Position numbers and translations under genes: made by a program | Shown here: piece by piece, positions 6,391-62,879 of the stretch | Position numbering within the stretch: position 1 is the first letter of the stretch | Layout: every line of letters starts with the position of its first letter | IMG/VR virus record: IMGVR_UViG_3300043466_003163 | Coordinates: 24,590 to 88,589 of that record | Length of the DNA stretch: 64,000 nucleotides | Direction: 5' to 3' (one strand) | From: a virus | Notes under the pieces: model-generated | What the model was told of the DNA's origin: nothing | Seen by the model: only the letters and a program-made list of their open reading frames with translations | Database searches by the model: none

Positions 6391-7125
6391 ATGTCAGAAG
6401 AACCTAAAAAAAGGGGTCGGAAGAGAACAAAGAATTTATATTTTGGTCCAGAACAGGAAGAAGCAGTAGTTAATTTTTTAACAAGTGAATCGTATAGTGA
6501 AAGAAATAAAATTTACAATGAGCATCTAAAAGGCCCAATTGATAAGATGGTTGAGTCCATCATAAGGCGTTATAAATTATATAGAAAAGAATATGAGTAT
6601 GAGGACGTACATTCTGATACTCTTTCTTTTTTGATAACTAAAATGCATAATTTTAAACCCGATAAGAATAAAAAAGCTTATTCTTATTTCGGTACAATAT
6701 GTAAACATTATCTTTTAGGACAATTAATAAAAGATGATAAAAAATTAAAATCTGATGTGTCATACGAAGATGTTTACAACACAGTAGAAACTATGGAGGA
6801 TTTAACCTATACCATAGATGATGATAAGTTGCAGTTAGATATTTTTATTGAGGAAATTTCTGCAAGTATTAAGGCAGAAATGAAATATAATAAATTATCG
6901 GATACTGAATCTAAAGTTGGGTCCGCATTAACAACTATTTTAGATAATTGGGAGACTATATTTGAACAAATAGAAAGTGGTAATAAATACAATAAAAATT
7001 TAATACTTTCTTATATCAGAGAAATATCTGATTTATCAACCAAAGACATCAGAATAGGTATGAGAAGATTTAAAAAGATATATGTTTTTATGAAGAATGA
7101 TAAATTAGAAGATGATTCTATATAA
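6391..7125 (+). CDS. gp55-like late-transcription sigma factor
   Basis: Resembles T4 gp55, the small sigma-like factor that directs host RNA polymerase to late promoters. The recognisable core is a conserved region 2-like helix set: RYKLYRKEYEYEDVHSDTL, then LITKMHNFKPDKNKKAYSYF and KHYLLGQLIKDDKK, paralleling gp55 residues around its LHNFDETKYKNPHAYIT segment. At 244 aa it is longer than T4 gp55 (185 aa), with a basic N-terminal tail (EEPKKRGRKRTK) and an extra C-terminal helical part. I use the ATG at 6391 rather than the in-frame TTG at 6385. Its likely targets are the ATATTTAT motifs described separately. Confidence 0.75.
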   Translation: MSEEPKKRGRKRTKNLYFGPEQEEAVVNFLTSESYSERNKIYNEHLKGPIDKMVESIIRRYKLYRKEYEYEDVHSDTLSFLITKMHNFKPDKNKKAYSYFGTICKHYLLGQLIKDDKKLKSDVSYEDVYNTVETMEDLTYTIDDDKLQLDIFIEEISASIKAEMKYNKLSDTESKVGSALTTILDNWETIFEQIESGNKYNKNLILSYIREISDLSTKDIRIGMRRFKKIYVFMKNDKLEDDSI

Positions 7126-7138
7126 AAAACTAATATCA

Positions 7139-7148
7139 GATATTTATA
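7139..7148 (+). promoter_or_regulatory. Candidate late promoter element GATATTTATA
   Basis: GATATTTATA lies 14 bases before the ATG at 7162, followed by an A-rich stretch. The same sense-oriented element precedes about 25 gene starts in this window and is proposed as the gp55-dependent late promoter. Confidence 0.5.
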
Positions 7149-7161
7149 GAAAAAGATTAAT

Positions 7162-7545
7162 ATGAGTAGACCGAAAAAAACTAAGATCAATTTAGATAAA
7201 AATAGTTTACAAGAATTAATGCAAGAAATCTATAATGATTGCACTAATATAATGAGTAGTGCTAGAAGAGAATTAACTGAAAGAAAACATAGGGTAGATA
7301 TTGAAGATATCAATGATGAATATCAAATAGGTAAAGTAAACAATGAGACACTAAAAATTATTGAGACTACTATTGATAAAAAAATTGCCTTAGCAAAATT
7401 ACAATCACAAATTTTAGGTAACAATTCAAACGATAACGAACAAACTTCATCTAATGGGGGTATTACTGAAGATGATAAAAATATTCTTAGGGAGTTATTT
7501 AAAGAGAAGGCTATAACTAAAAATACTGAATACGATGTAGATTGA
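7162..7545 (+). CDS. Possible small terminase subunit
   Basis: 127 aa, mostly helical: a basic start (MSRPKKTKINLDKN), a long central helical region containing ETLKIIETTIDKKIALAKLQ, and a disordered Asn/Ser-rich linker before a C-terminal helix. The size and central coiled-coil-like segment are compatible with the oligomerisation core of T4-type small terminases, and the gene sits in a structural operon. There is no decisive motif, and it is far from the large subunit gene at 20.7-22.5 kb, so the call is tentative. A candidate late promoter precedes it. Confidence 0.35.
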   Translation: MSRPKKTKINLDKNSLQELMQEIYNDCTNIMSSARRELTERKHRVDIEDINDEYQIGKVNNETLKIIETTIDKKIALAKLQSQILGNNSNDNEQTSSNGGITEDDKNILRELFKEKAITKNTEYDVD

Positions 7546-13522: not shown

Positions 13523-15274
13523 TTATCTCAATTCGTTGATATCAAACGTTACTACACCGTCAACAGTTACAGTTCCGTAGAATCTGTTGTTAACCATTTT
13601 CTTAGCGTATCTCGTCATAATACCCTTCGTTGGAGCGAAGTTGAATGGATTTTGTAATGTAGGAGTCAATTGTAGAGGTACATACGGAGCGTAAATGTAA
13701 CCTGTATCTAACAATGACTTACCTTTATGTCCAACAATAATTGAGTTAGCTGGTGCGTAAGGGTCTCTATACACAGTATATCTACCACCTAATGAACCAA
13801 TTTTCTCAATACCCATATTGTACTGATCTTGCTCAGGAGAAGCGTTTGATACGTGGAAGTATTCTAAATCATCGAAAATTGCTGAAACTTCAGAAGATAC
13901 AACGATAAAGTTAGCACCAGCTCTCAAAGTAGATTTGTGGATTTGAGCTGAAATTTGGTTGATTTTAGTAATCAACGTTTGATTCCACTCTTTTTGAGTG
14001 TAAGCATTGAATCCACCACCGTTGTTAGCTCTTTTCCAACCGTTGTAATCCCATCTCAATTGCCAAGCCGCACCTTTTCTTAAATCTCTTAAGATCTCTC
14101 TATCGATCTCAGCAGCAACCTGCTCAGACAATAAAGCTGTAAGTTCAGCCTCAGCATCGATGTTATGGAATGCACTAACGTCTTGTGCTAATTCTGGTGA
14201 CCAAGTAGCTCTTAGTTTTCTTTCTGTAACTGATACTACTACTTCATCTAATTCAAAAGATACTTCACCCATTTCTGTAGCGAATTCTAATGAATCATAT
14301 CTTCTCCAAGATATTGTTAAACCTGTGAATGTTGTAGCTGAAGATGCTCCAATGTAACCATCAAAAGTTTTAGAAGCACAATCAACACAAGTTGGGTGTG
14401 TTAAATCTAATTCGATTAACAATTTACCATCTGCAGTACAGATATCACTATAATCTACAATTCCTCTACCATATTTTTGTGTAACCAATCTGAAAGGAAC
14501 TTCAGAACCAGATGCGATGATAGAATTTCCTGATGGGTCAACGATTGCTGGAGTAGAAACTACTTTCAAAGAAGATAAGAAAGTTTCAGTATCCATTTCA
14601 TTACCATCTGGACCAGTTAATCTACCAGCATTTGTAGTAGAGAAACCTGTTACTGCTAAAGTAACGTGTCTAAATGAACCGTCAGCTGCTTTTGCTTGTG
14701 CAGTAAGAGCTGTAGGAACTTGTACACCACTAGAGTTTAATACAACACCTTGGTAACCTGCAGTTGCGAAAACTATTTGTTTACCTTTTGAAGCGTCATA
14801 TAAACCATCATTATAAAACAAATCATACAATGATTTAGTTTGGAACTCAGTAAGAGTTGTTGATCCACAAGCTGAGATTGTACACTCAGGTAATGCACCG
14901 TGACCATCTAAATCTTTACCGTTCAAAGGAACTTGTGTTGTAGATGTTTTTGGTACAAAGTAGAATAATTTACCGATTGGCATGTTCATCGCTTGTACCG
15001 ATACGATATCGTTAGCCAATAATTTAGAGAATACTCTTCTTACAATTGGGAAAACAACTGTTTCGAATGATCCAGAAGAATCAGCAGAAGTTGACTCACT
15101 CAATAGAGCAGACGCTTGGTTTTCGTATAATTGTGCGATGTTCTCTTTGATGTGACCTTTTAAACCATCTAAGAAACCTAAAGAGTTCCACTTAGAGATA
15201 GTTTTAGATCTAATTTGCTTTAGGTGCTCAAGTCCGATATTACCGACTTCACCAGAATTTAACAAATGTCCCAT
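13523..15274 (-). CDS. Major capsid protein, gp23-like
   Basis: T4 gp23-type capsid subunit, 583 aa (T4: 521). Recognisable stretches: FETVVFPIVRRVFSKLLAND, PIGKLFYFVPK, RKLRATWSPELAQDVSAFHN, EAELTALLSEQVAAEIDREI and the C-terminal YDPYAP-like RDPYAPANSIIVGHKG, then TRYAKK. A processing site matching the T4 rule is present: ALLSE|STSADSSG, cutting after residue 60 (T4 cuts after 65). Codon use is more regular and GC content higher than in neighbours, as expected for a highly expressed gene. Last gene of the head operon, with a strong terminator behind it. Confidence 0.95.
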   Translation of the reverse strand: MGHLLNSGEVGNIGLEHLKQIRSKTISKWNSLGFLDGLKGHIKENIAQLYENQASALLSESTSADSSGSFETVVFPIVRRVFSKLLANDIVSVQAMNMPIGKLFYFVPKTSTTQVPLNGKDLDGHGALPECTISACGSTTLTEFQTKSLYDLFYNDGLYDASKGKQIVFATAGYQGVVLNSSGVQVPTALTAQAKAADGSFRHVTLAVTGFSTTNAGRLTGPDGNEMDTETFLSSLKVVSTPAIVDPSGNSIIASGSEVPFRLVTQKYGRGIVDYSDICTADGKLLIELDLTHPTCVDCASKTFDGYIGASSATTFTGLTISWRRYDSLEFATEMGEVSFELDEVVVSVTERKLRATWSPELAQDVSAFHNIDAEAELTALLSEQVAAEIDREILRDLRKGAAWQLRWDYNGWKRANNGGGFNAYTQKEWNQTLITKINQISAQIHKSTLRAGANFIVVSSEVSAIFDDLEYFHVSNASPEQDQYNMGIEKIGSLGGRYTVYRDPYAPANSIIVGHKGKSLLDTGYIYAPYVPLQLTPTLQNPFNFAPTKGIMTRYAKKMVNNRFYGTVTVDGVVTFDINELR

Positions 15275-16676: not shown

Positions 16677-17366
16677 TTAATCTAATAAAAAATTGTTTAA
16701 ATTATTTTTTAATAAATCTAAATCTTTTTTAGTTTTTGATTCTGACATTTGTTGTTCTCTAGATGGTTCTTCACTATAAATCCAAGAACCAGGTGTAGAT
16801 GGTGAAGTTACAATATCCCAACAAATAAGTTCATAATCATCCTGAACTACATTTTTACCACCTTCTTTTTCTAATGAACCTACCCCTCTAGATGAAACAC
16901 CAATTTTTAAACCTTTTCTTAAATAATTTGCTACCCTATCTCCTTCACAAGAAATAATTCCTTGATTGACAAATCCTGGTGACATTATGATTTCTAATTT
17001 ACCCATCAATATATTACCTTCCCACCATAAGTCTACAACATTATGTGAAATTCTACTTACCGCAACTATTGACGATTCTGGGTGATCAGCTTCACCTAAT
17101 GCTCTTTTTTCTTTTATAAGTTTAAGATAGTTTTCTGCTTCCCTTCTTAGAATTGCTTCGGGATATACTCTTTCATTTCTATTCTCTACACCGTATTTTT
17201 GCATAACGGCATAAACAACTAAAGGTTCTTCTATTATAGGTGTACCTTCAGTTAATTTATTTACTTCATTTACAAAGTGTCTATTATCTTTAGGGGAAAT
17301 ATATCCTGCGTCATATTCGATTAGGATTCCCTTTTTTCTAAAGTCATTCTTTTTTAAGATTTCCAT
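16677..17366 (-). CDS. Prohead maturation protease, gp21-like
   Basis: Serine protease (herpesvirus assemblin-type fold) that digests the core and trims the shell during head maturation. Catalytic His is in GEADHPES (H95); catalytic Ser is in KIGVSSRGVG (S158/S159). The 229 aa length matches T4 gp21 (212). A self-processing site fits the family rule: QQMSE|SKTKK after E209, which would release a 20-residue C-terminal helix. In T4 the protease cuts after L/I-x-E; the many I/L-N-E sites in this window are its probable substrates. Confidence 0.92.
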   Translation of the reverse strand: MEILKKNDFRKKGILIEYDAGYISPKDNRHFVNEVNKLTEGTPIIEEPLVVYAVMQKYGVENRNERVYPEAILRREAENYLKLIKEKRALGEADHPESSIVAVSRISHNVVDLWWEGNILMGKLEIIMSPGFVNQGIISCEGDRVANYLRKGLKIGVSSRGVGSLEKEGGKNVVQDDYELICWDIVTSPSTPGSWIYSEEPSREQQMSESKTKKDLDLLKNNLNNFLLD

Positions 17367-17412: not shown

Positions 17413-17850
17413 TTATTTTTTAGTTTTATAGAATTTAAAAATAGAATTATTTTCAAAACAGTTATTTACTACATCGTAAATAATTGTTTTTGTGTGGTCA
17501 ATTATGTTTGGTTGATTTAATGATAAATTTTTCTTTTGATAAAGTGTTATCTCACAAGACATAAAACTTCTTTTATTAATATCAAAACCTGAAGTTCTCA
17601 TATCTAAATCCACTATGTATCTATCACTATAGAAATAATCTTTATTTAGAGTATTATTTAATTTTTGTTTTATTTTTTTTCTGATATTACTTAAAAAAAT
17701 ATCATAATTATTTTCTTCCCCATCATTTATTATCTGTCCCCACGCAGTAAAGTTTATATACAAACTTTTTGATTCTTTATTGTTTACTGTACCAATTTTT
17801 GTTTTATAGTTGTCTAATAAATCTAATTTGATTTCTTTTCCTAATTTCAT
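17413..17850 (-). CDS. Hypothetical head-operon protein (145 aa)
   Basis: Unrecognised protein lying between the core-like protein and protease genes. It has mixed beta structure, with a central amphipathic helix (LSNIRKKIKQKLNNTLNKDY) and a strand pair RYIVDLDMRTSGFDINKRSF then MSCEITLYQKK. Basic overall. It has its own upstream TAAATTTG box and follows a terminator, so it may be transcribed independently of the portal block. Connector or neck role is possible but not shown. Confidence 0.65.
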   Translation of the reverse strand: MKLGKEIKLDLLDNYKTKIGTVNNKESKSLYINFTAWGQIINDGEENNYDIFLSNIRKKIKQKLNNTLNKDYFYSDRYIVDLDMRTSGFDINKRSFMSCEITLYQKKNLSLNQPNIIDHTKTIIYDVVNNCFENNSIFKFYKTKK

Positions 17851-17959: not shown

Positions 17960-18739
17960 TTAATCATTTGTGATTGTTTGTTTTAAATTATAAAACTTAA
18001 TTATGTCATCACTAAAATTATCTTTTTGATATTTAGTATTTAATAGTTTATCTTTAACTTTAAGTAACTTATCTTTTAAATCTAAATCAGATGACTCATT
18101 CAATTTAGAATCTACTGTAATTACACAATCTCTTTTTAATTTATTGTATATATCTTCTTTTTCACTATCACTACCATTTAAAATTGAGTGTATGATTTTT
18201 TTATCTGATTCATTAATATCACTATATTTGCTATTAAACTTATTTACAAATAATTTAGTTAAAACACTAGGTGGTACATTAATAGTTTCATGATTAATTT
18301 CTTCTGTAAAGATTTCATTTTTTGTAGTCATAAATTCTATTAATTTATTAGTTGCCTCATTTATTTGATTTATATTTGAAGGTGTTTTTTTAGTACTACC
18401 TAAATAAGATATATTTTTATAAAATTCATTATTTTCTTTAACAATTTTTTTACCCTTTAAAAGTTTTAATAAAGAATTGTTAGATTCATTAATTTTATTT
18501 TTATCAATAGATTTAAGTAGCTCAATATTTTCATTTAAATATTCTTTCGCCTCAAATTTATCGTCAAATTTTTTAGTCTCTAAATTCTTATATATTAAGA
18601 ATTGATCTCTAATAGTTTTATTTTCTTTTAATGTTTTTAAATACTTTCCAAATAATTTTTTACCTGATGAATCTTTTTTAATTACTGATTCAATAATTAT
18701 TTTTTTAAAAGTATCCTTTATATTACCAAAATTTTCCAT
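17960..18739 (-). CDS. Putative internal core protein with many prohead-protease sites
   Basis: 259 aa, Lys/Asn/Glu-rich and helical. It sits between portal and protease, where T4 encodes core proteins gp67 and gp68. It contains at least six sites fitting the protease rule: IIIES, TLKEN, YLNEN, KINES, QINEA, DINES and KLNES. These occur roughly every 25-60 residues, so digestion would yield a set of short peptides. No sequence similarity to a named family is visible. The role as prohead core component is inferred from position and site density. Confidence 0.6.
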   Translation of the reverse strand: MENFGNIKDTFKKIIIESVIKKDSSGKKLFGKYLKTLKENKTIRDQFLIYKNLETKKFDDKFEAKEYLNENIELLKSIDKNKINESNNSLLKLLKGKKIVKENNEFYKNISYLGSTKKTPSNINQINEATNKLIEFMTTKNEIFTEEINHETINVPPSVLTKLFVNKFNSKYSDINESDKKIIHSILNGSDSEKEDIYNKLKRDCVITVDSKLNESSDLDLKDKLLKVKDKLLNTKYQKDNFSDDIIKFYNLKQTITND

Positions 18740-18778: not shown

Positions 18779-20689
18779 TTAATCTATCATATTATCTATT
18801 TGTTTTGTTATCTCATTTATCTTAGAATTTAATTTTTCTGCACCATCCTCAAACATATCTAAACTATATACATTCTCATTTTTTTCTAAACTTTCAGTTA
18901 ATTTTTTTAAATAAATTCCTTGATATTTTTTTACCTTTTCTAAATATTTTTTATTTTGTTGTTCTAATAGTAAGTTATCCGTTTTTTTGGTTGATTCCAT
19001 AGCAGGTTCAGCACCTCCCGCAAGTTCAGCACCTCCCGCAGGTTCAGCACCTCCCGCAGGTTCAGCACCTCCCGCAGGTTCAGCACCTCCCGCAGGTTCA
19101 GCACCTCCACCAGCACCTGGTTCTGCAGCACCAGCACCTGCCATCAGTGAATCAAAATCACCATATAATCTATCAACCCTATCAAATATACCTGTCTTTT
19201 TAATAACTTCTGCAGTTTGTTCCATTTCTGCTGCCGCAGCTTTTTCTAATCTTTGTTGTTCTAAATCATTCCTTATTTCTTCCTCAGACATACCTAAAAT
19301 TTCTTTTTTGGCTCTAGTCATTGACATTGCACCAAATCCATTACCTGCGTCCGCAACTGCATCTTTATAAAGGGTTACTTTTAATTGAGTTTGTTCTACT
19401 TTAAGCATTTCTGCTTGAGTTGATGGGTTATTTAAAGTTAAAGTAAAATTTTCTAATTCATCTTCTAACCCTAAAATGTATAAATGTATGATTGCAATCT
19501 TATTTAATTCTTGCAACATAGCTTGTTGTATTCTATTTATAGTTCTAGCAAATCTTATATCTTGTAAAGCTAAATTCTTACCTTCACCATTTGCTTCCTC
19601 AAACCCTAAAAATGGTTTAGGTACTCTAAGAGCCGTAAATAATTTTTTCTGTAAATACTGAATATCCGCAATTTCAGATAAGTTAGTTGCACCAGCGAGT
19701 GTATCTATTGGGCTAGGGGCATTTGCATCTCTAACTGGAATAAAATAATCCTGATCCTGAGCCATTTGATTATAACGTGTATCTATTTGTCCTGTGTTTT
19801 GATCGATAACAGGACTTCTCTTAAAGTTATTTGCGATTTTATTAACATATGCGGGTACGTCTTGTTCATCAATGTTACCAACATAAATTTTAAATATTCT
19901 TCTTTCTGGTGCCCTTGTAACTCTATAAATTAACATTGCATCTTCAGAAAGTAATAATTGTTTCCATATTCTTCTACCTTTTTCTAACATAGATGTTCCA
20001 TAAGGTAATCTTCTATCATCACCTAATAATCTAAAGTGTGCAACTTGCCACGCATTAAATTCAACATCTCTTTGACCCCAAACAAATTTTACTGGATTAT
20101 ATTTATCAGTTTCAGCATTCATAGAATTCTCACCAAAACCTTCATTTTCTTTTCTAGTAATTTCTATATTAGGTAATTGTTTTACCCCTAATATTCCTTC
20201 TTCACTATCTATGTTTAAAAATAAAAAATTATCTCCGTATTTACAGGTATTTCTTGTCCACATTGGAAGTGAGGTGTGGATATCTAATCTATTAAAAAAT
20301 AAATCTTCTAATATTCTTCTAACTCTTTTACTTTCAGAAAAAATATTTATCATTTTATTTTCTGAATTAAGTGTAGTAGATTCTTCCATCATAATGTCTA
20401 ACGCTGCAGAAATTTCAGGAAAGAATTCCATACCCTCAAAATCTGCGTATGATGCCAATCTAGTTGTTTCATAATAAACGGAATGTTGATAAATATTATT
20501 ATCAACTTTTTGCCACATATTAGCCAAATAGGCATCTTGCTGTCTTTTTAATTTTTCAAATTCAAATTCTTCTTTTGATTTTGTTTTTAATAATTCTTTA
20601 TCGTTTAAAGAATATCTAGATTTATTTTGTTGTTTTACTTCTGGTCCAAATAAATCATTCAATTGTTGGAATACAGTTTTTCTTGCCAT
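18779..20689 (-). CDS. Portal vertex protein, gp20-like
   Basis: 636 aa (T4 gp20: 524). Forms the dodecameric connector for DNA entry. Family stretches include YADFEGMEFFPEISAALDIM, FSESKRVRRILEDLFFNRLD, NTCKYGDNFLFLNI, HFRLLGDDRRLPYGTSMLEK, VTRAPERRIFKIYVGNID and LRVPKPFLGFEEANGEGKNL. After residue ~500 there is an inserted low-complexity tail made of GGAEPA units encoded by an 18-bp tandem repeat, then a helical C-terminus with LLLEQQ and KLTES sites that could be protease targets. Second gene after terminase in the operon. Confidence 0.93.
   Translation of the reverse strand: MARKTVFQQLNDLFGPEVKQQNKSRYSLNDKELLKTKSKEEFEFEKLKRQQDAYLANMWQKVDNNIYQHSVYYETTRLASYADFEGMEFFPEISAALDIMMEESTTLNSENKMINIFSESKRVRRILEDLFFNRLDIHTSLPMWTRNTCKYGDNFLFLNIDSEEGILGVKQLPNIEITRKENEGFGENSMNAETDKYNPVKFVWGQRDVEFNAWQVAHFRLLGDDRRLPYGTSMLEKGRRIWKQLLLSEDAMLIYRVTRAPERRIFKIYVGNIDEQDVPAYVNKIANNFKRSPVIDQNTGQIDTRYNQMAQDQDYFIPVRDANAPSPIDTLAGATNLSEIADIQYLQKKLFTALRVPKPFLGFEEANGEGKNLALQDIRFARTINRIQQAMLQELNKIAIIHLYILGLEDELENFTLTLNNPSTQAEMLKVEQTQLKVTLYKDAVADAGNGFGAMSMTRAKKEILGMSEEEIRNDLEQQRLEKAAAAEMEQTAEVIKKTGIFDRVDRLYGDFDSLMAGAGAAEPGAGGGAEPAGGAEPAGGAEPAGGAEPAGGAELAGGAEPAMESTKKTDNLLLEQQNKKYLEKVKKYQGIYLKKLTESLEKNENVYSLDMFEDGAEKLNSKINEITKQIDNMID
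19005..19108. repeat. 18-bp tandem repeat inside the portal gene
   Basis: Five full copies and a partial sixth of GGTTCAGCACCTCCCGCA (second copy has A for the first G) encode Gly-Gly-Ala-Glu-Pro-Ala on the minus strand. The copies are almost identical and far more GC-rich than the surroundings, so copy number is probably unstable by slippage. Confidence 0.95.
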
Positions 20690-20740: not shown

Positions 20741-22531
20741 TTATTTAATACCAAATAACCAATTATATTCTCCATTATTGTTATTGTCGTGAGGTTGTTT
20801 TGGGTGATAAGATGGTGTATTAACATAAAATGGATTAACATATCCTTCTTTCATCATAGGTTTTGACGGTGTAGTAGACATATTCACCCAACTCTCTAAC
20901 ATAGCCTTAGTTTGTTTTTCAACTTGTTCTAATTTTTTAAAAGATGTTTGTATTATAAAAATACACATCGCATATGCCATAATTATATCATCATGATATC
21001 CTTCCATATGATCTGGTCTACCATTTTTATATACAAATGTTCTTAACTCAGATATCATCCTTTGGGAACGTATTATAGTTTTATTTTCTCTAATATGTTC
21101 TTCTAATTCCGAAACCATTTGTAATCTGGTGTTACCCACATTAAACCCAGGAACTTTATCACCCTCTTTATATTTTGTTTTTGCATATTTCTCACTCAAT
21201 TTTCTACTTTTTGGGTCATCATAATGTAAAAATTTATAATCCATTTCCATTAATTTTAGTACCGTTGATACTCCCATACCACCAGTAATATCTATAACTG
21301 TATAGGCATTATACATATTACCGTACTTATATACTATTTCCGCCAATATATCAGGTGGTAGTTTATATTTAAATTCTGCAACTTGTTCTAAATTTTCAAA
21401 GTCTAATATTACTATTGTAGAACTATCTTTTCCATCACCTCTACTAACGTCTACACCCATAATATATTTATGACCAACTTCAGGTTCTTTCCAAATCCAC
21501 ATAGACTTTTCAATCTCTGACGCAAAATTAGGGTCAGTAACATAATTTTCTTCATGATATGTAATATATTCATCATCTATTACGTTACCTCCTGAACCAA
21601 TAAAAGATACATCTAATTCTTGTGCAATCTTTTTAGCATCACCCATATCTGCTGCCATCTCTTCATACCAAGGGGATAGAGGTTTCCAACCATCTTTTAT
21701 CATCACCTCATAGTATTCTATCGTAGATTCGTCAGTTTCATAAATTTTATCGAGATATTCCCACCTTAATCTAGTTCTGTCTAATGTTTTACAAAGTAAT
21801 TTTTCATCGTCACCTCTTTTCCAATATAAATTTCTATTATATCTTACATCTTGATACCACTTCATCTCAACAATGTTGAAATTGTTTTCTTTTTTCTTTG
21901 CCCCATCATACGTTTTATAATATAAAGGATCCATACCATTTGGTGTAGAAATTAAAGATATCTTACCACCCGTACCTAATGATGCTAAAGCCGCCCCAAA
22001 AACTTCTGAACCATTATCGATAAACGCCGCCTCGTCCATTACTAAGAATGTTGGTGTAAAACCCCTCAATGCATCTTTTGAAGTTGCTAAGGCTCTTATT
22101 TCACATCCATTTGATTTTAATTTTAAATGACCTTTAGAATTTATTTCTAAATAATCTGTGCCTTCATCTAACCCCCAAACCCAATAAGGAATTTGATCTA
22201 AGAAATCTTTAATTTTTTTAAGAAATTCTTGTGCTAATGTTTGTTTGTTGGCTAATATCAAAACTTTATGTGGATTATCAGGATCACCAAAAGCAGTTTT
22301 AACTGCAATATATGCGGCAGTTGTTGTAGATACACCCGCCTGTCGAGGTTTAGTAACTAAATTACGATTATACTTTTCATACGATTTAATAATTTCTTTT
22401 TGTTTATAAAATAACTTAAATGGTACATTACCTCCTTGAGTTAAATCGAATGTTTTTAAAAAAGTTTCTATCGCATAAATTGGATCACCTAAACATCGAG
22501 CATATGTCTTTAATTGTTCTGCTCTTTCCAT
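20741..22531 (-). CDS. Large terminase subunit, gp17-like
   Basis: DNA-packaging motor, 596 aa (T4 gp17: 610). ATPase domain: Walker A TKPRQAGVST (residues 60-69), Walker B FLVMDEAAF (162-170) and a coupling motif LISTPNG. Nuclease domain: acidic metal-binding clusters MGVDVSRGDGKDSST (about 355-370) and TVIDITGGMG. FHDD-type late motif is represented by GYHDDIIMAYAM. All catalytic residues are intact. First gene of the portal-core block on the minus strand, with its own candidate late promoter. Confidence 0.95.
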   Translation of the reverse strand: MERAEQLKTYARCLGDPIYAIETFLKTFDLTQGGNVPFKLFYKQKEIIKSYEKYNRNLVTKPRQAGVSTTTAAYIAVKTAFGDPDNPHKVLILANKQTLAQEFLKKIKDFLDQIPYWVWGLDEGTDYLEINSKGHLKLKSNGCEIRALATSKDALRGFTPTFLVMDEAAFIDNGSEVFGAALASLGTGGKISLISTPNGMDPLYYKTYDGAKKKENNFNIVEMKWYQDVRYNRNLYWKRGDDEKLLCKTLDRTRLRWEYLDKIYETDESTIEYYEVMIKDGWKPLSPWYEEMAADMGDAKKIAQELDVSFIGSGGNVIDDEYITYHEENYVTDPNFASEIEKSMWIWKEPEVGHKYIMGVDVSRGDGKDSSTIVILDFENLEQVAEFKYKLPPDILAEIVYKYGNMYNAYTVIDITGGMGVSTVLKLMEMDYKFLHYDDPKSRKLSEKYAKTKYKEGDKVPGFNVGNTRLQMVSELEEHIRENKTIIRSQRMISELRTFVYKNGRPDHMEGYHDDIIMAYAMCIFIIQTSFKKLEQVEKQTKAMLESWVNMSTTPSKPMMKEGYVNPFYVNTPSYHPKQPHDNNNNGEYNWLFGIK

Positions 22532-38564: not shown

Positions 38565-40526
38565 TTAAAAACCTGGACAACAAGTTGGGCAAGTCCATTT
38601 TGGTACAAATGGACGAGTTCTAGGTTTAAACGATACTCTACCTAATTTTTTCCTAATTTTTCGTATACCTCTTTTTAAATCGTTCCATGTATCTGTTAAA
38701 TTAAATTCACCATTTGCATCAAATTGTAAACCTAAACCCGGAACTGCAATAACGTAGTAATCTTCACCAACTTCCTCTTTTGTTACGACTTCTGGTTTTT
38801 TAAGTGTTACAGTTAAACCACCTAAATTCATTCTATAAGGGCCATAAACTTTATTATATTCTCCACGAAGTTCTTTTTGTGAAATTTCTCTACCTGCATA
38901 TTTGCTCGCCTGAATAGCCGATGATTCAGTTCTGTTACCGTAAAACATTTGTGGTGTAATTTTTTTACCTGCATCGTTAAATCTTTTATATGCAATTTGG
39001 AATAGTTCACCATATTGGGATATAGGTACTTCAGATCCATCAGCATTTTTACCGTCAATCTTTTCCCATCCAGGTCCAATATTTGGACGAGTAACTTTAG
39101 ATCCTAACACTATATTGTATTTACCTAACCCTAATCTATCTAACATATTACGTATAGATGTTTCTATAGTATCACACCTATCTTCCGCCAATTGTATATT
39201 ATTTTTTTCACTAAATGTTTTATCTTTACTCTTATAAGTGGTTCTTACTTTACTAGTTGACCCATAAACATAAATATTTATAGATTCTACTACTAATGCA
39301 AAATCTTCACCTAAATTATGTTGGTTTCTTAATTTAATAACATCGTCTTCCTGTTGATTGATGAATTTTCTAAGTAATACAATTTGTTCTTTTAAACCTT
39401 CTCTGGCCGAATCAGACATTTGAGTTCCGTCATCTGGGAAAAAGTTTCTACTCATTTCATTTCTTTTTTCAGTATCTTCTGTTACTGGTGGGTATTGAAA
39501 CATTTGACTTTCACCTGTAACCATTTTAGGTATTACTTTCACTTTACCGTCATCTAATCTAACTTGTTCTAAAGATTCAGGTTTATCAGTTATTTTTATA
39601 GTATTTATCTTACCAATTATTTTTTTAAATGTATCCTCACCCATTTTTTCCACATCTTCGGATAGTTTAGACAATAATTGTTTTTTTAAACCAGCCCCTT
39701 GAACTTCTCCAACTTTAATTTTTGAGTCACTATCCGCCTTTAACCCAATAGCACCCTTTTTTTGTAAATTTAATCCGACTAAAGCACTTACTCTATTTAT
39801 TGTATCATTAACATCATTATGTTTACCTTCTACAAAATCTACTATCGATTCTAATCTTTCACTTATATCGTTTATATCAGATTTAGGTAAAAATACGTTG
39901 GCCGAGTTTAATGCCTCCGCTTCTTTTTTTAATTTTTCTAATGTTCTAGTAGACTCTAATTTTTTTATTTGTTCTAAACCTTTAACATCAGTAATTTTTG
40001 ATTTTAATGTTTCTATATTTATTTTTGATAATAATGTGGGAATATTTTTTTGCATTTCCTCATCATACTTATCAGGTTTAACTTCGTTTTTTTTATTTTT
40101 TTTAGTAGGTTCGGTTTTTGTAATACCGTAATAAATCTCACCAAACATCCAGTTCTTTAAACTAGATTTAGTTTCTGGACTATCATTATTTATAAACCAT
40201 TCCATCATTATTTCATAAGATGGATTATTTTTGATTGATGTGTCAATATAGTCATCTACTTCTTTAACATATTTAATTATGTCTTTTATTTTTGCATTTT
40301 CCCAATTTACAGAACCACCTTTTGACCAATCATGAAATTTAGGGGGTTCAGTAGAGTTTGTTTGTGGTTGACCTTCTTCTCCTTCTTCTTTTAATAAGTG
40401 TTTTTTTAGAATTCTTTCCTCCAAAAGTCTATCATATGAGGTAACATTTTCTCTATAATGAGATGAATTAAAATTCATTAATTTTCTCATTTTAAATATC
40501 TCCTCACTTAAATTTTTTGATCCCAT
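38565..40526 (-). CDS. Large putative virion protein with OmpA-like region (653 aa)
   Basis: The N-terminus is unusual but contains two sites fitting the protease rule (YDRLLE|ER and HLLKE|EGEEG near residues 36-47). The middle is helical (residues 70-330). Around 400-480, VVESINIYVYGSTSKVRTTY followed by NNIQLAEDRCDTIETSIRNM and LGLGKYNIVLG resembles the OmpA-C fold pattern (beta strand, then a helix with L-x-x-x-R). The C-terminus is basic (RGIRKIRKKLGRVSFKPRTR) and ends with CPTCC. OmpA-like peptidoglycan binding would fit an injection role; both points are inference. Confidence 0.5.
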   Translation of the reverse strand: MGSKNLSEEIFKMRKLMNFNSSHYRENVTSYDRLLEERILKKHLLKEEGEEGQPQTNSTEPPKFHDWSKGGSVNWENAKIKDIIKYVKEVDDYIDTSIKNNPSYEIMMEWFINNDSPETKSSLKNWMFGEIYYGITKTEPTKKNKKNEVKPDKYDEEMQKNIPTLLSKINIETLKSKITDVKGLEQIKKLESTRTLEKLKKEAEALNSANVFLPKSDINDISERLESIVDFVEGKHNDVNDTINRVSALVGLNLQKKGAIGLKADSDSKIKVGEVQGAGLKKQLLSKLSEDVEKMGEDTFKKIIGKINTIKITDKPESLEQVRLDDGKVKVIPKMVTGESQMFQYPPVTEDTEKRNEMSRNFFPDDGTQMSDSAREGLKEQIVLLRKFINQQEDDVIKLRNQHNLGEDFALVVESINIYVYGSTSKVRTTYKSKDKTFSEKNNIQLAEDRCDTIETSIRNMLDRLGLGKYNIVLGSKVTRPNIGPGWEKIDGKNADGSEVPISQYGELFQIAYKRFNDAGKKITPQMFYGNRTESSAIQASKYAGREISQKELRGEYNKVYGPYRMNLGGLTVTLKKPEVVTKEEVGEDYYVIAVPGLGLQFDANGEFNLTDTWNDLKRGIRKIRKKLGRVSFKPRTRPFVPKWTCPTCCPGF

Positions 40527-40601: not shown

Positions 40602-40742
40602 TTATTTTAACCTTCTTTTTCTATTAATTGTAGATTCTGAAATTTGATTTCTTTTTTCTCTTTTAACTTCGTTAACAATAGTTTCGATAAGATTAATCAT
40701 TTCTGATTCTGTTAATCTAATAGTTTTTTTACCCTGTCTCAT
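40602..40742 (-). CDS. 46-residue mini-cargo: targeting segment plus basic peptide
   Basis: Minus-strand ATG at 40742 encodes 46 aa. The first 25 residues, MRQGKKTIRLTESEMINLIE then TIVNE, are an archetypal member of the shared N-terminal family. Predicted cleavage after VNE leaves a 21-residue, strongly basic peptide containing VKREKRNQISE and ending NRKRRLK. The gene lies in the otherwise empty gap between two minus-strand genes. A targeting segment with almost no cargo parallels the small internal peptides of T4 heads. This is the cleanest case for the propeptide hypothesis. Confidence 0.75.
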   Translation of the reverse strand: MRQGKKTIRLTESEMINLIETIVNEVKREKRNQISESTINRKRRLK

Positions 40743-40770: not shown

Positions 40771-42408
40771 TTAAAGCATATTACCTTTAGTCATTTCTAA
40801 GAATTTGTTAAAATCTTCTACACCTTTTTCATCTAAATTTTTAGTACTTATAGATAACATAACTAAACTACCATTACCCTCCCTATACATATCCATTGCA
40901 ACATCTAAATTAAATTTAGTGATTGGGTTTTCAGTTAAATTAAGTAAGAAAAGATTTGTTAATTTTTCATACCCCCTTAATGGTACTTCTTTTATATTAT
41001 TATTTTTTGCGATAAACACGTTAAAATTTTCGTGATTCGGTAAATACTCTATTGGTGGTAGCCTTTTTAAATCACAATTATTTGCATTAAGTCTCTCTAA
41101 TTTATGGAATTTAGATAAATCAGGTATTTCTTTTATAGATAGTCCTGAGAAATCTAAAGAAGTAGTATTATCAGAATCTAAGTAATCTATGATATTTACT
41201 TCTTCTGTGTTTTGCATTAACCATTGTAAATATTTATTACTTTGTAAAGGACCTTTTGTTTGTGATGCCATCTTTTTTATATTGTTAACACCCTCTTGAT
41301 AAATTTCAGGTGAAATAACATCCCCAACACTACCACCAAACATATTTAGATATTTTATGTAACTACTATCCATTAATCCAGTACCTTTTTTAACATCCAT
41401 TTCAGTTAACTTACCTAACTCTTTATTAAAGAATGTTTTTAAACCAGGAAATCTATTAAGTACCTCTGATAATTTACCACTTCTTTCTATTGAGCTATTA
41501 TTTTTATCATGTAACTGATTAGATTCGAAATGGAATTGTAATGGGTATAAATTTCCTTCATCATCACCATCAAATAGTTTTTTTGGCATAATTACATAGT
41601 ATTCAGATAAAGAACCATCAGGTTTAGGATTATTTCTTCTATAAGATTCAAAATAACTATTACCTTCCCTTCTTGTACACCAAGAAGCTAAAGGTCCTAA
41701 TGGATCACAACTCGATTCTATTGTTAATGGTGTATAAACTAAAACATCGTTATCTCTATACACTAATTTAGCTTCACCTAAATCAATATATTTTTTAAGT
41801 TTTTTCCATAATCTACTTTCACCTTCTTCACTGTCTTCTTCATCTTCAGAACCAACAAAAGGACTAACTACTGAATATAAATGTGCTAAATCATTATACT
41901 GATTAATATTTGTTACATCTTGAGGTGCATTAGGTCTATTAGGCGCACTTCTTTTAAATACTTTTTTATTTTTAACTGAATCAAATACTGTTAAAAATTC
42001 ATTTGCTTCTGGTAAATCTTCCGTTAAAAATCTAATCGCTTGATCAACATCACCTTCATTAATATGTCTCATAAATACTTGTATCATCCATTGTACATAT
42101 TGTTTATTAGATGACGGATCTGCCTCAACTATGTCATTAAAAATATGTTCACTTAACTTTACTGATTGTTTTCCTTTTTTGTTTTTTACAATATATGCTA
42201 TATCTACACCATTATGATCTTCTATTGGTTCTATAATAGGTTTATTTGGCTTCATTCCACCTGAAGTTCTTTTGTCATCCTTTTCATCTTCTCCATCTAC
42301 CGCATCATCTAATAGTTTAGGATCAATAACATTTTGTGTTTTTAAATACTGAACTCTATCTTCTTTTAATAAAATTCTATACTGATTTTCAGTTATAATA
42401 TATTTCAT
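40771..42408 (-). CDS. LRR-containing protein with capsid-targeting-like N-terminus (545 aa)
   Basis: N-terminus MKYIITENQYRILLKE|D matches the shared family. Residues ~195-330 contain a conserved-looking domain (LWKKLKKYIDLGEAKLVYRD; PLASWCTRREGNSYFESYRR; YPLQFHFESNQLHDKNNSSI) that I recall from many phage proteins of unknown function. The C-terminal ~130 residues are leucine-rich repeats (LDFSGLSIKEIPDLSKFHKL; LERLNANNCDLKRLPPIEYL). Probably a packaged protein with a binding function; no enzyme motif is evident. Confidence 0.6.
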   Translation of the reverse strand: MKYIITENQYRILLKEDRVQYLKTQNVIDPKLLDDAVDGEDEKDDKRTSGGMKPNKPIIEPIEDHNGVDIAYIVKNKKGKQSVKLSEHIFNDIVEADPSSNKQYVQWMIQVFMRHINEGDVDQAIRFLTEDLPEANEFLTVFDSVKNKKVFKRSAPNRPNAPQDVTNINQYNDLAHLYSVVSPFVGSEDEEDSEEGESRLWKKLKKYIDLGEAKLVYRDNDVLVYTPLTIESSCDPLGPLASWCTRREGNSYFESYRRNNPKPDGSLSEYYVIMPKKLFDGDDEGNLYPLQFHFESNQLHDKNNSSIERSGKLSEVLNRFPGLKTFFNKELGKLTEMDVKKGTGLMDSSYIKYLNMFGGSVGDVISPEIYQEGVNNIKKMASQTKGPLQSNKYLQWLMQNTEEVNIIDYLDSDNTTSLDFSGLSIKEIPDLSKFHKLERLNANNCDLKRLPPIEYLPNHENFNVFIAKNNNIKEVPLRGYEKLTNLFLLNLTENPITKFNLDVAMDMYREGNGSLVMLSISTKNLDEKGVEDFNKFLEMTKGNML

Positions 42409-51003: not shown

Positions 51004-51789
51004 TTATACTGCTGCTTTATATCCATCACAATTATCTACACACCACTTACCAAATTCGAACATTCTCATTTGTTCTTTTGTTGGGTCTCTCATAGGCATT
51101 AAATTAATATATCCAGGTTTGAAGTATTTTCTACAACCTTCACAACTAAAATCATTTGATATTTTATCATCTTTTACCCATCCGATACAACCCTCAAAAC
51201 CTTTATAATCTGGTGCGGGTATTATAATGTGTTTTTTAACACAATCTTTAAGTATTTTACAATCAATCCCATCAATAATTTTTATAGGATCATATTCATC
51301 TCTTTCTTGCCATCTATCATCATCTCTTTCTTGCCATCTATCATCTTCTTTACAATCACACGATGGACAAAATTCATTTTTAGGTAGAGATTTACTATAC
51401 GCCAAAGTAGTACACATCGCCTTCCAAGTATTATAACCAACAATACCATCAACAACTAACCCATATTTACTTTGTAGACTTCTTTGGAATTCTTTTACTG
51501 CGTCTTCAGTATGACCTTTAAATATTCCATCACATCTTCTCCAGTCAGTGGCACAAAAATCAGTCATACCTCCACCACCATACTTGGAATTATATCCATG
51601 AACTGCTAAAATGTGTTGTATCATTTTAATTACATCTCCTGAAGATCCTTTAGCAGCAATTTTTCTTCTACATATTATATCACAAATTATATCACCTCTA
51701 GTGATTAAACCTAAATATGATTCATTTAATACATTTTTAACAATTTTTTTAAACTGAGTCTCAGTCAATCTATATACCTTTTTTTTCAT
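51004..51789 (-). CDS. Peptidoglycan-binding protein with capsid-targeting-like N-terminus
   Basis: Order: MKKKVYRLTETQFKKIVKNV then LNE|SYLG (cut after residue 24); a PG_binding_1 domain (residues ~45-130) with GSSGDVIKMIQHILAVHGYN, CDGIFKGHTEDAVKEFQRSL and VVDGIVGYNTWKAM; a Cys-rich stretch FCPSCDCKEDD; a tandem DDRWQERD repeat; and a C-terminal Cys module (IDCKILKDCVKKHIIIPAPD) shared with the protein at 55032. Lacks a hydrolase domain. Wall binding during or after DNA delivery is the obvious inference. Confidence 0.75.
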   Translation of the reverse strand: MKKKVYRLTETQFKKIVKNVLNESYLGLITRGDIICDIICRRKIAAKGSSGDVIKMIQHILAVHGYNSKYGGGGMTDFCATDWRRCDGIFKGHTEDAVKEFQRSLQSKYGLVVDGIVGYNTWKAMCTTLAYSKSLPKNEFCPSCDCKEDDRWQERDDDRWQERDEYDPIKIIDGIDCKILKDCVKKHIIIPAPDYKGFEGCIGWVKDDKISNDFSCEGCRKYFKPGYINLMPMRDPTKEQMRMFEFGKWCVDNCDGYKAAV

Positions 51790-60538: not shown

Positions 60539-60871
60539 TTAGTAATTACTACAATTACTAATAGTACCATAGAAAAATTCTGTTATATTATCTTTTACAC
60601 CCAGTGAAGATAAAAATTCTATTACCTCATCATATTCTAAACCAGGAAAATCATTTTTAACACTCCAAACCAAATGATCTAATGTCTCTGAAATATATCT
60701 TGGTCCTTCATTTACATTCCAGTAGTTACAAATTTCTATAGGAGATAGTGAATCTATATAATCTCTAATGTAGAGATTAATATTTTTTATTTTAGAATTA
60801 TTATTTTCTGTAATAACTTTACTAACAATTCTTCGTAAATCTGATTCGGTTAGTCTTATAATTTTTTTCAT
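60539..60871 (-). CDS. Protein with long-class targeting-like N-terminus (110 aa)
   Basis: MKKIIRLTESDLRRIVSKVI then TE|NNNSKIKN; cut predicted after residue 22. Mature part is helical: LYIRDYIDSLSPIEICNYWN, ISETLDHLVWSVKNDFPGLE, VIEFLSSLGVKDNITEFFYG. No domain recognised. Three bases from the convergent gene end at 60536. Confidence 0.65.
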   Translation of the reverse strand: MKKIIRLTESDLRRIVSKVITENNNSKIKNINLYIRDYIDSLSPIEICNYWNVNEGPRYISETLDHLVWSVKNDFPGLEYDEVIEFLSSLGVKDNITEFFYGTISNCSNY

Positions 60872-61280: not shown

Positions 61281-61817
61281 TTATTTCCCTTTTCTCATTT
61301 TTTCTAGTTCTACATCGAAAGCCCTTTTTAAATCGTTAGGTGACAATCCCCCTATTGAGTCATATGGTTCATCTGGATCTGCGTATAACTTTTCTACATA
61401 ATATTGTATATCACCTGCCAATTCAGTTTCATTATGTTCTTCTAATAAATCAATAAGTTCAAACTCATTTAATTCCTCAAGATAATCACTAGAGATACCG
61501 TATTCACTCTCCAATAATTCCATAGCCTCAAAGATTAAACCATCCAATTCATATGCAGACATATCTTTATCCTCCAGTTCATCTTCACCATAATCAACCT
61601 CTTCATCATATTCTTCATCATCACCGTAATATGGGTCATACATACTTCTATCTTTATAGTCATCATCTTTACTTTTTGTTTTAGCAAATGCTTTTTTCAA
61701 ATCATTTACTGAGTACCCTCCAATTGAGTCGTATGGTTCGTCCTCCATTTCATTTATTGTTCGTTTAACGATTCTTCTTAAATCTGTTTCTGTTAATCTA
61801 ACTATTTTCTTTTTCAT
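61281..61817 (-). CDS. Acidic protein with long-class targeting-like N-terminus (178 aa)
   Basis: MKKKIVRLTETDLRRIVKRT then INE|MEDEPYD; cut after residue 23. The mature part begins and ends with a duplicated unit (EPYDSIGGYSVNDLKKAFAK and EPYDSIGGLSPNDLKRAFDV) enclosing a very acidic middle (YGDDEEYDEEVDYGEDELED) and a helix (AYELDGLIFEAMELLESEYG). Function unknown; its acidity is like that of core or DNA-mimic proteins. Confidence 0.65.
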   Translation of the reverse strand: MKKKIVRLTETDLRRIVKRTINEMEDEPYDSIGGYSVNDLKKAFAKTKSKDDDYKDRSMYDPYYGDDEEYDEEVDYGEDELEDKDMSAYELDGLIFEAMELLESEYGISSDYLEELNEFELIDLLEEHNETELAGDIQYYVEKLYADPDEPYDSIGGLSPNDLKRAFDVELEKMRKGK

Positions 61818-61865: not shown

Positions 61866-62879
61866 TTATCTTTTAATTTCAACACGACCCCCTACGTTAA
61901 TCATATTCTGAATGTCTTCTTCAGTATATTCCTTAGATAAAGGAGAAGTACCACTAATGATTAAATCACCACCTACTGATTTTAATTTACCAAAATCAAC
62001 AAGACTTTTACTGGTTATCCACAATTTACCCCCAATTACTTCTAAATTTTGTAATGATTCAATCTCATCATTATGTACCGAAACCTTACCTGTCACTTCA
62101 ACAAGATCATTCAAGTCTGTAAAATAATCTATTTCTAAATCACCATCTATTTTTGTGACTCCATCTTCTATACCATCATAACTACTTCTTTCAGTCTCAC
62201 TATCACTTTTTGTATTTAAATCTTTTCTATATGATTTACCATCAACTTCGTTTGATTGTTCAATTTTAACCATATTATATAAGAACTCAGCCACTTGATT
62301 ATGTCCACTAATATTATTTTTTCTTAACTCATTTCTAAAATGTGAGATGATACGTTCTAACATAAATAAATTTACATTTTCATAACCTTTTTGAATGTCT
62401 AACCTTTCTAATTTAACCAAACCTTTTCTCTCTAAAGATTTAAGTTTTCTAACCGCAAATTCATCAGCGACCTGTTCAACCTCATACATAAACTTTGCGG
62501 CATCTGATAAAGATAAATGTTCTTCATATATCTCCAACATTTTTTCTTTACCATATTTCTTAAACTGATATTGGTGGGCCATTTCGTGAAACAAAACAAA
62601 CAATACCTTACCCAATGAATAATTTAAAATAGTCGGATTTAATATTAATCTATTACCCAATGCCAAACCATCTCCCATTTTCATTTTTTGGAATTTTACA
62701 TTCTCACATCCCCCCATTTTAAAAGTGTTTATTATTTCCGATTTTAATTCTTCACTTAAATCATATCTATCGTCTAATATTTTAATAAATTCAGACTCAC
62801 CTTCTGTTTCTTCATTAATCACATGTGTAACAATTCTATTTAACTGATTTTCTGTTAACCTAACTACCTTCTTTTTCAT
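61866..62879 (-). CDS. Zinc peptidase-like protein with long-class targeting-like N-terminus
   Basis: MKKKVVRLTENQLNRIVTHV then INE|ETEGES; cut after residue 23. Residues ~25-160 hold a peptidase-like domain: KVLFVLFHEMAHQYQFKKYG (H98, E99, H102) and YEVEQVADEFAVRKLKSLER with a possible third ligand in EQVADE, as in ImmA/SprT-like gluzincins. The C-terminal ~100 residues are right-handed repeat strands (LVEVTGKVSVHNDEIESLQN; LEVIGGKLWITSKSLVDFGK; LKSVGGDLIISGTS). Intact HExxH suggests a working enzyme. Confidence 0.7.
   Translation of the reverse strand: MKKKVVRLTENQLNRIVTHVINEETEGESEFIKILDDRYDLSEELKSEIINTFKMGGCENVKFQKMKMGDGLALGNRLILNPTILNYSLGKVLFVLFHEMAHQYQFKKYGKEKMLEIYEEHLSLSDAAKFMYEVEQVADEFAVRKLKSLERKGLVKLERLDIQKGYENVNLFMLERIISHFRNELRKNNISGHNQVAEFLYNMVKIEQSNEVDGKSYRKDLNTKSDSETERSSYDGIEDGVTKIDGDLEIDYFTDLNDLVEVTGKVSVHNDEIESLQNLEVIGGKLWITSKSLVDFGKLKSVGGDLIISGTSPLSKEYTEEDIQNMINVGGRVEIKR

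What the first reader, a model, noticed from the sequence alone, without database searches (positions are those of the whole stretch)
40602..40742. 46-codon gene made almost only of the targeting segment
Unannotatably short gene encoding the complete long-class segment plus 21 very basic residues. A conserved targeting segment with virtually no cargo is hard to explain unless the segment is a functional unit; the product would be a basic internal peptide suited to DNA condensation.
Basis: partly seen in the sequence, partly recalled or inferred. Interest (0 to 1): 0.75.

Follow-up and report, generated by a model that had tools for sequence, protein, structure and literature searches.

The report
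Conserved mini phage-head peptide gene
A tiny gene in a T4-like virus of bacteria, kept by all 22 related viral sequences found, encodes a short helical tag followed by a few arginine-rich residues, and most likely carries a small DNA-binding peptide into the virus head, where the virus's own protease would cut it loose.

Summary
The 46-codon gene is real. It recurs in 22 viral contigs (17 distinct proteins, 44-60 aa), once per genome in those searched and always at the same place, just downstream of a 545-aa segment-bearing gene. Its protein is under strong purifying selection (pN/pS 0.17, P about 4e-10). The phage has a T4-type head: Gp23 capsid protein, S77 prohead protease and T4-type portal. 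In 16 cargo-bearing paralogues the N-terminal segment stays conserved up to a [I/L]-x-E and then stops abruptly, matching the T4 gp21 cleavage motif. The phage's own capsid protein shows a similar putative junction, LL[S/N]E|S/A.

In the short family that cleavage-like site is eroded: the P3 residue is always V, and the Glu is Q or K in 5 of 17 proteins. A new invariant site, [I/V]-x-E|S, lies 11 residues further on. So the likely mature product is not a fragment starting VKREK. It is the 8-24-residue tail, hypervariable but arginine-rich (R/(R+K) 0.72, against 0.28 in the proteome).

Best explanation: a minimal T4-style internal-protein precursor delivering a protamine-like peptide, working like adenovirus pre-Mu. 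Packaging, cleavage and DNA binding are inferred, not shown.

The parts
40602..40742 (-). whole short gene, 46 aa, ATG start, TAA stop
   Evidence: conserved in 22 contigs; pN/pS 0.17
40668..40742 (-). residues 1-25: long-class N-terminal segment shared with larger proteins; putative capsid-targeting propeptide
   Evidence: AlphaFold2 model is one helix, residues 12-45, mean pLDDT 86; residues 12-26 amphipathic
40635..40667 (-). residues 26-36: family-specific conserved extension VKREKRNQISE ending in the invariant [I/V]-x-E cleavage-like site
   Evidence: E36 and S37 invariant in 17/17 distinct homologues
40605..40634 (-). residues 37-46: STINRKRRLK, the arginine-rich hypervariable tail, putative mature peptide
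   Evidence: family tails R 84, K 32, D+E 7 of 236 residues against proteome R 3.5%, K 9.0%
40771..42408 (-). 545-aa neighbour with short-class N-terminal segment (MKYIITENQYRILLKE) and C-terminal leucine-rich repeats; synteny partner of the short gene
   Evidence: distant PA5oct homologue annotated as structural protein with ESI-MS/MS note
38565..40526 (-). gene after the short gene; another conserved N-terminal class (NLSEEIFKMRKLMNF); this position holds variable genes in relatives
16677..17366 (-). prohead protease (Peptidase_S77), the candidate processing enzyme
   Evidence: Pfam PF03420 E 1.9e-22, PHROG head maturation protease
13523..15274 (-). major capsid protein (Gp23) with putative propeptide junction ALLSE|S
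   Evidence: Pfam PF07068 E 8.2e-72; junction LL[SN]E|[SA] in four relatives
18779..20689 (-). T4-type portal protein
   Evidence: Pfam PF07230 E 7.1e-77
51004..51789 (-). paralogous long-class segment on a protein with a peptidoglycan-binding domain
60539..60871 (-). paralogous long-class segment with unrelated cargo
61281..61817 (-). paralogous long-class segment with unrelated cargo
61866..62879 (-). paralogous long-class segment on a 337-aa protein (weak SprT-like match, below cut-off)

Best explanation
The gene encodes a minimal internal-head-protein precursor of a T4-type phage. Its N-terminal amphipathic helix is a capsid-targeting propeptide of the kind this phage also puts on larger proteins, and it would bring the product into the prohead core. 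The S77 prohead protease would then cut after [I/V]-x-E36 and release an 8-24-residue arginine-rich peptide starting at S37 inside the head. That peptide would neutralise or condense packaged DNA, much as adenovirus Mu does, and might be ejected with it. Shown here: the gene, its conservation, its selection, the shared segment, the T4-type head and protease, the conserved site and the arginine enrichment. Inferred: targeting, cleavage and the DNA role.
For: 17 distinct homologues in 22 contigs with conserved place and frame. pN/pS 0.17, P about 4e-10. T4-type head genes in the window and in most large enough relatives. In 16 cargo-bearing paralogues conservation ends at [I/L]-x-E (15/16 Glu) and drops to near background in the next columns. 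T4 gp21 cuts after L/I-X-E, and T4 capsid-targeting sequences are short N-terminal propeptides carried by otherwise divergent basic internal proteins (PMC9026906). The phage's own capsid protein has LL[SN]E|[SA] at the propeptide position. E36-S37 is invariant in 17/17 although flanking residues vary. Tails have R/(R+K) 0.72 against 0.28 in the proteome of a 27% GC phage, so the basicity is not a by-product of AT-rich codons, which would give lysine.
Against: No proteomic, structural or genetic data exist for this phage or any close relative. P3 at the conserved site is V in 2 of 17, outside strict L/I-x-E. The window's own tail (3 R, 2 K of 10) is unremarkable on its own (binomial P 0.14); the enrichment is a family property, and the homologues are not statistically independent. 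One member, L011, has a lysine-rich rather than arginine-rich tail. Several large contigs carry such segments with no detectable S77 or Gp23, though those contigs may be incomplete.
Confidence: 0.5

Rival explanations
1. A small core or scaffold component. The conserved helix itself is the functional part, helping assemble the prohead core as T4 gp67 and gp68 do, and the basic tail is only a charge anchor. After assembly it is cut up and cleared.
For: The helix is the most conserved part of the protein. It has invariant [L/M]-x-E sites at E12 and E20 as well as E36, so multiple cuts are possible. In T4, gp22 and gp67 are cleaved into several fragments that mostly leave the head (PMC9026906). 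The gene is single-copy and universal in the clade, as expected of an essential part.
Against: The gene is not in the head-gene block between portal and protease, where two other small genes lie (17413-17850 and 17960-18739). It does not explain why the tail keeps its arginine richness while its sequence changes freely.
Confidence: 0.22
2. An injected micro-effector. The released peptide is ejected with the DNA and acts in the host, for example by binding nucleic acid or a host enzyme, like T4 internal protein I.
For: T4 internal proteins share a conserved targeting sequence but have divergent mature parts with defence roles (PMC3012670; PMC9026906). The tail sequence varies rapidly.
Against: Tail composition stays constant while sequence varies, which suits a charge-based role better than specific recognition. 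An 8-24-residue peptide leaves little room for a fold.
Confidence: 0.12
3. A non-virion RNA- or DNA-binding regulator with an arginine-rich motif, whose N-terminus merely descends from the common segment.
For: Short arginine-rich peptides are common in nucleic-acid-binding regulators (general knowledge). The segment's targeting role is itself inferred.
Against: The gene lies among many genes carrying such segments, next to one whose distant PA5oct homologue is annotated as a virion protein by ESI-MS/MS. The invariant E-S junction has no obvious role in such a regulator.
Confidence: 0.1
4. A relic of a longer gene that lost its cargo.
For: L011 has an open frame of about 90 codons directly after the short ORF across an A10 run, so a fused form is conceivable.
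Against: Purifying selection, fixed location and conserved length class across proteins whose neighbours are only 55-79% identical.
Confidence: 0.03

Closest known systems
T4 internal proteins IPI, IPII, IPIII and Alt with capsid-targeting sequences (CTS)
   Same: Short conserved N-terminal segment on divergent, often basic cargos; a cleavage-like motif matching L/I-x-E; a phage with gp21-type (S77) protease and Gp23 capsid.
   Different: The T4 CTS is 10 residues with a different sequence. Here the putative propeptide is about 36 residues and the cargo only 8-24. No packaging or cleavage has been shown.
Adenovirus pre-Mu (pX) and mature Mu
   Same: Small precursor with protease sites releasing a short arginine-rich peptide inside the virion; Mu helps condense viral DNA (PMC7998265).
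   Different: Unrelated virus, protease and sequence. Mature Mu is the 19-residue middle part of a 79-residue precursor; here the basic part is at the C-terminus. A functional analogy, not homology.
T4 core proteins gp67 and gp68
   Same: Small prohead core proteins associated with S77-type maturation (PMC9026906).
   Different: Different gene position; no sequence comparison was made. The candidate here ends in an arginine-rich tail.
phiKZ and SPN3US ejection proteins with N-terminal propeptides
   Same: Shared N-termini on paralogous internal head proteins, cut after x-x-E by an S77-type protease (PMC5694885).
   Different: S/A-x-E or A-x-E motif, usually much longer propeptides, large cargos.

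Membership tests
T4-type CTS-bearing internal head protein | encoded by a phage with a T4-type capsid protein and gp21-type protease | tested here: met
   PF07068 8.2e-72, PF03420 1.9e-22, PF07230 7.1e-77; present in most larger relatives
T4-type CTS-bearing internal head protein | N-terminal segment shared with other proteins of unrelated cargo | tested here: met
   four further long-class proteins in the window and 16 over four genomes
T4-type CTS-bearing internal head protein | propeptide ends at an L/I-x-E cleavage motif | tested here: met
   I-S-E|S in the window; P3 is I in 15/17 and V in 2/17 homologues, E and S invariant. A sequence motif only; cleavage not observed
T4-type CTS-bearing internal head protein | sequence similarity to the T4 CTS itself | not tested
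   no alignment with T4 sequences was run; PHROGs and Pfam give no match for the short protein
T4-type CTS-bearing internal head protein | packaged in the head, cleaved, and found in virions | not testable with these tools
   needs virion proteomics of an isolate
Adenovirus Mu-like condensing peptide (analogy only) | short arginine-rich mature peptide | tested here: met
   tails R 84, K 32 of 236 residues; L011 is a lysine-rich exception
Adenovirus Mu-like condensing peptide (analogy only) | homology to pre-Mu or its protease | not tested
   no comparison was run; none is claimed
Adenovirus Mu-like condensing peptide (analogy only) | binds and condenses the viral genome | not testable with these tools
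   needs a binding assay

The most novel reading that the evidence does not exclude
A clade-wide tailed-phage gene whose only cargo is an arginine-rich peptide of 8-24 residues, released inside the head from a capsid-targeting propeptide whose cleavage site has been moved 11 residues downstream of the site used by its cargo-bearing paralogues: a phage counterpart, reached independently, of adenovirus pre-Mu.
Probability: 0.35. Interest if true: 0.75.

Novelty: new variant of a known kind. Interest (0 to 1): 0.52.

Why it matters
If the reading is right, this is close to the smallest natural example of T4-style head targeting: a targeting helix, a cleavage site and a peptide. It would show that large uncultivated phages may package dedicated arginine-rich DNA-binding peptides, which standard annotation misses because the genes fall below length cut-offs. 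It would also give a compact tag for loading peptides into phage heads, and it makes the targeting role of a widespread N-terminal segment directly testable.

Tried and rejected
Scan of genome contigs with the short-gene alignment found nothing. Flavobacterium phage immuto, a distant isolate with a T4-type head, was read for the same segments: the pattern used found none at the N-termini, so it gives no proteomic test. A literature search for the segment letters found nothing. Rejected: chance ORF, decaying relic, and conserved RNA element (synonymous sites diverge freely). A weak PHROG match of one homologue to a holin C-terminus (E 0.0023) was set aside: it is confined to one end of the profile, and the protein has no long hydrophobic stretch. 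The attempt to link all segment-bearing contigs to an S77 protease failed for several of them. The comparison of Glu at +13 between paralogues and short family is not significant by itself (Fisher P 0.17); the P3 difference is (P about 1.5e-8), but homologues are not independent.

Full report
Observation. The reported ORF exists at 40602-40742 on the minus strand: ATG start, 46 aa, MRQGKKTIRLTESEMINLIETIVNEVKREKRNQISESTINRKRRLK. The window is bases 24590-88589 of an 88,589-base virus record, 27% GC. The first 25 residues match the N-termini of four larger proteins in the window.

Setting. The window holds a T4-type head module: Gp23 capsid protein at 13523-15274, S77 prohead protease at 16677-17366, T4-type portal at 18779-20689 and a terminase at 20741-22531. 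The capsid protein is distantly related to those of many T4-like phages, including Flavobacterium phage immuto and Rhodothermus phage RM378. The host is not known.

Conservation. Searching with the 545-aa upstream neighbour gave eight related contigs; all eight carry the short ORF right after it. A search with the short-gene alignment itself, and a wider search with the neighbour's alignment, raised the total to 22 contigs and 17 distinct proteins of 44-60 aa. In the loci laid out gene by gene the same neighbour lies upstream, with one extra 51-aa gene between in some, while the downstream gene varies. In the 16 records searched with the short-gene alignment it occurs once. Distant homologues of the neighbour (22-29% identity) showed no short gene beside them.

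Selection. Over 30 codons and six pairs chosen to be independent there are 32 synonymous and 22 nonsynonymous differences, pN/pS 0.17, against the neutral expectation P about 4e-10. The median over all pairs is 0.30. Synonymous sites diverge freely, so the constraint is on the protein.

Where the segment ends. In 16 cargo-bearing long-class proteins from four genomes, information content is high up to a Glu 13 residues after the anchor Glu (15 of 16), preceded at P3 by I or L in 14 of 16, and drops in the columns that follow. This matches the L/I-X-E motif of T4 gp21 (PMC9026906). The capsid protein has LL[SN]E|[SA] at the position expected for its propeptide in four relatives. These are motif matches; no cut has been observed.

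Where the short family differs. At the same position P3 is V in 17/17 (1 of 16 in the cargo set) and the Glu is replaced in 5 of 17 (Q four times, K once). Conservation instead runs on through VKREK to an invariant E36-S37, with I (15) or V (2) at P3. A tree of the neighbour protein, which held only some of these loci, needs at least two separate changes at the +13 Glu. The inference is that the release site has moved 11 residues downstream.

The tail. After E36 the tails are 8-24 residues, with R 84, K 32 and D+E 7 of 236. R/(R+K) is 0.72, against 0.28 for 150,750 proteome residues of four genomes. For several tails no C-terminus of equal length among 705 genes is as arginine-rich. The window's own tail is a moderate member, and L011's is lysine-rich. 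AlphaFold2 gives a single helix, residues 12-45, mean pLDDT 86; residues 12-26 are amphipathic.

Interpretation. The simplest account is a T4-style internal-protein precursor reduced to a targeting helix, a cleavage site and an arginine-rich peptide. Arginine richness kept despite sequence turnover suggests a charge-based role on DNA, as for adenovirus Mu, which is cut from a small precursor by the virion protease and helps condense the genome (PMC7998265). T4 internal proteins show the same plan with larger cargos. Targeting, cleavage and DNA binding remain inferences.

Weak points. Several segment-bearing contigs, including one of 223 kb, show no S77 protease or Gp23; they may be incomplete or use other head proteins. 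Evidence that a segment-bearing protein is in a virion is indirect: a distant homologue of the neighbour (about 24% identity) in Pseudomonas phage PA5oct is annotated as a structural protein with an ESI-MS/MS note, and whether it carries a targeting segment was not tested.

Noticed in passing
L111:133-1977 (contigs of L018-L020): The S77 prohead protease gene is interrupted by an apparently complete intein inserted beside the conserved DHPES motif (GE|CVPEGTEIY...SWTHN|CDHPES).
   Followed up: partly
L018:4337-6568 and 6812-7534: A ClpB-like gene carries what looks like an atypically split intein at its Walker A motif: one ORF ends GDPG|CVLGDTKIKVKKISDISI, the next ends its intein part with GIISHN|TGKTT, 243 nt apart.
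   Followed up: partly
L011:2144-2437: An A10 run at the end of the short ORF is followed in another frame by about 90 open codons without an early start; either a frameshift fusion or a sequence error. No homologue in the loci held.
   Followed up: partly
L037:3998-4153: A different 51-aa gene joins a long-class segment to a basic KWSEKYKKSINCKNPKGFSQRAHCQGRKK peptide: possibly a second kind of mini-cargo.
   Followed up: no
L110 (QCKH01000009.1): One relative lies on a contig deposited in a Prochlorococcus sp. AG-409-L21 assembly; true host link uncertain.
   Followed up: no
window 38565-40526 and the gene after the short gene in relatives: Downstream genes vary in body but keep another N-terminal class, such as NEEI.RMK.LM.F, suggesting a further kind of targeting segment.
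   Followed up: no
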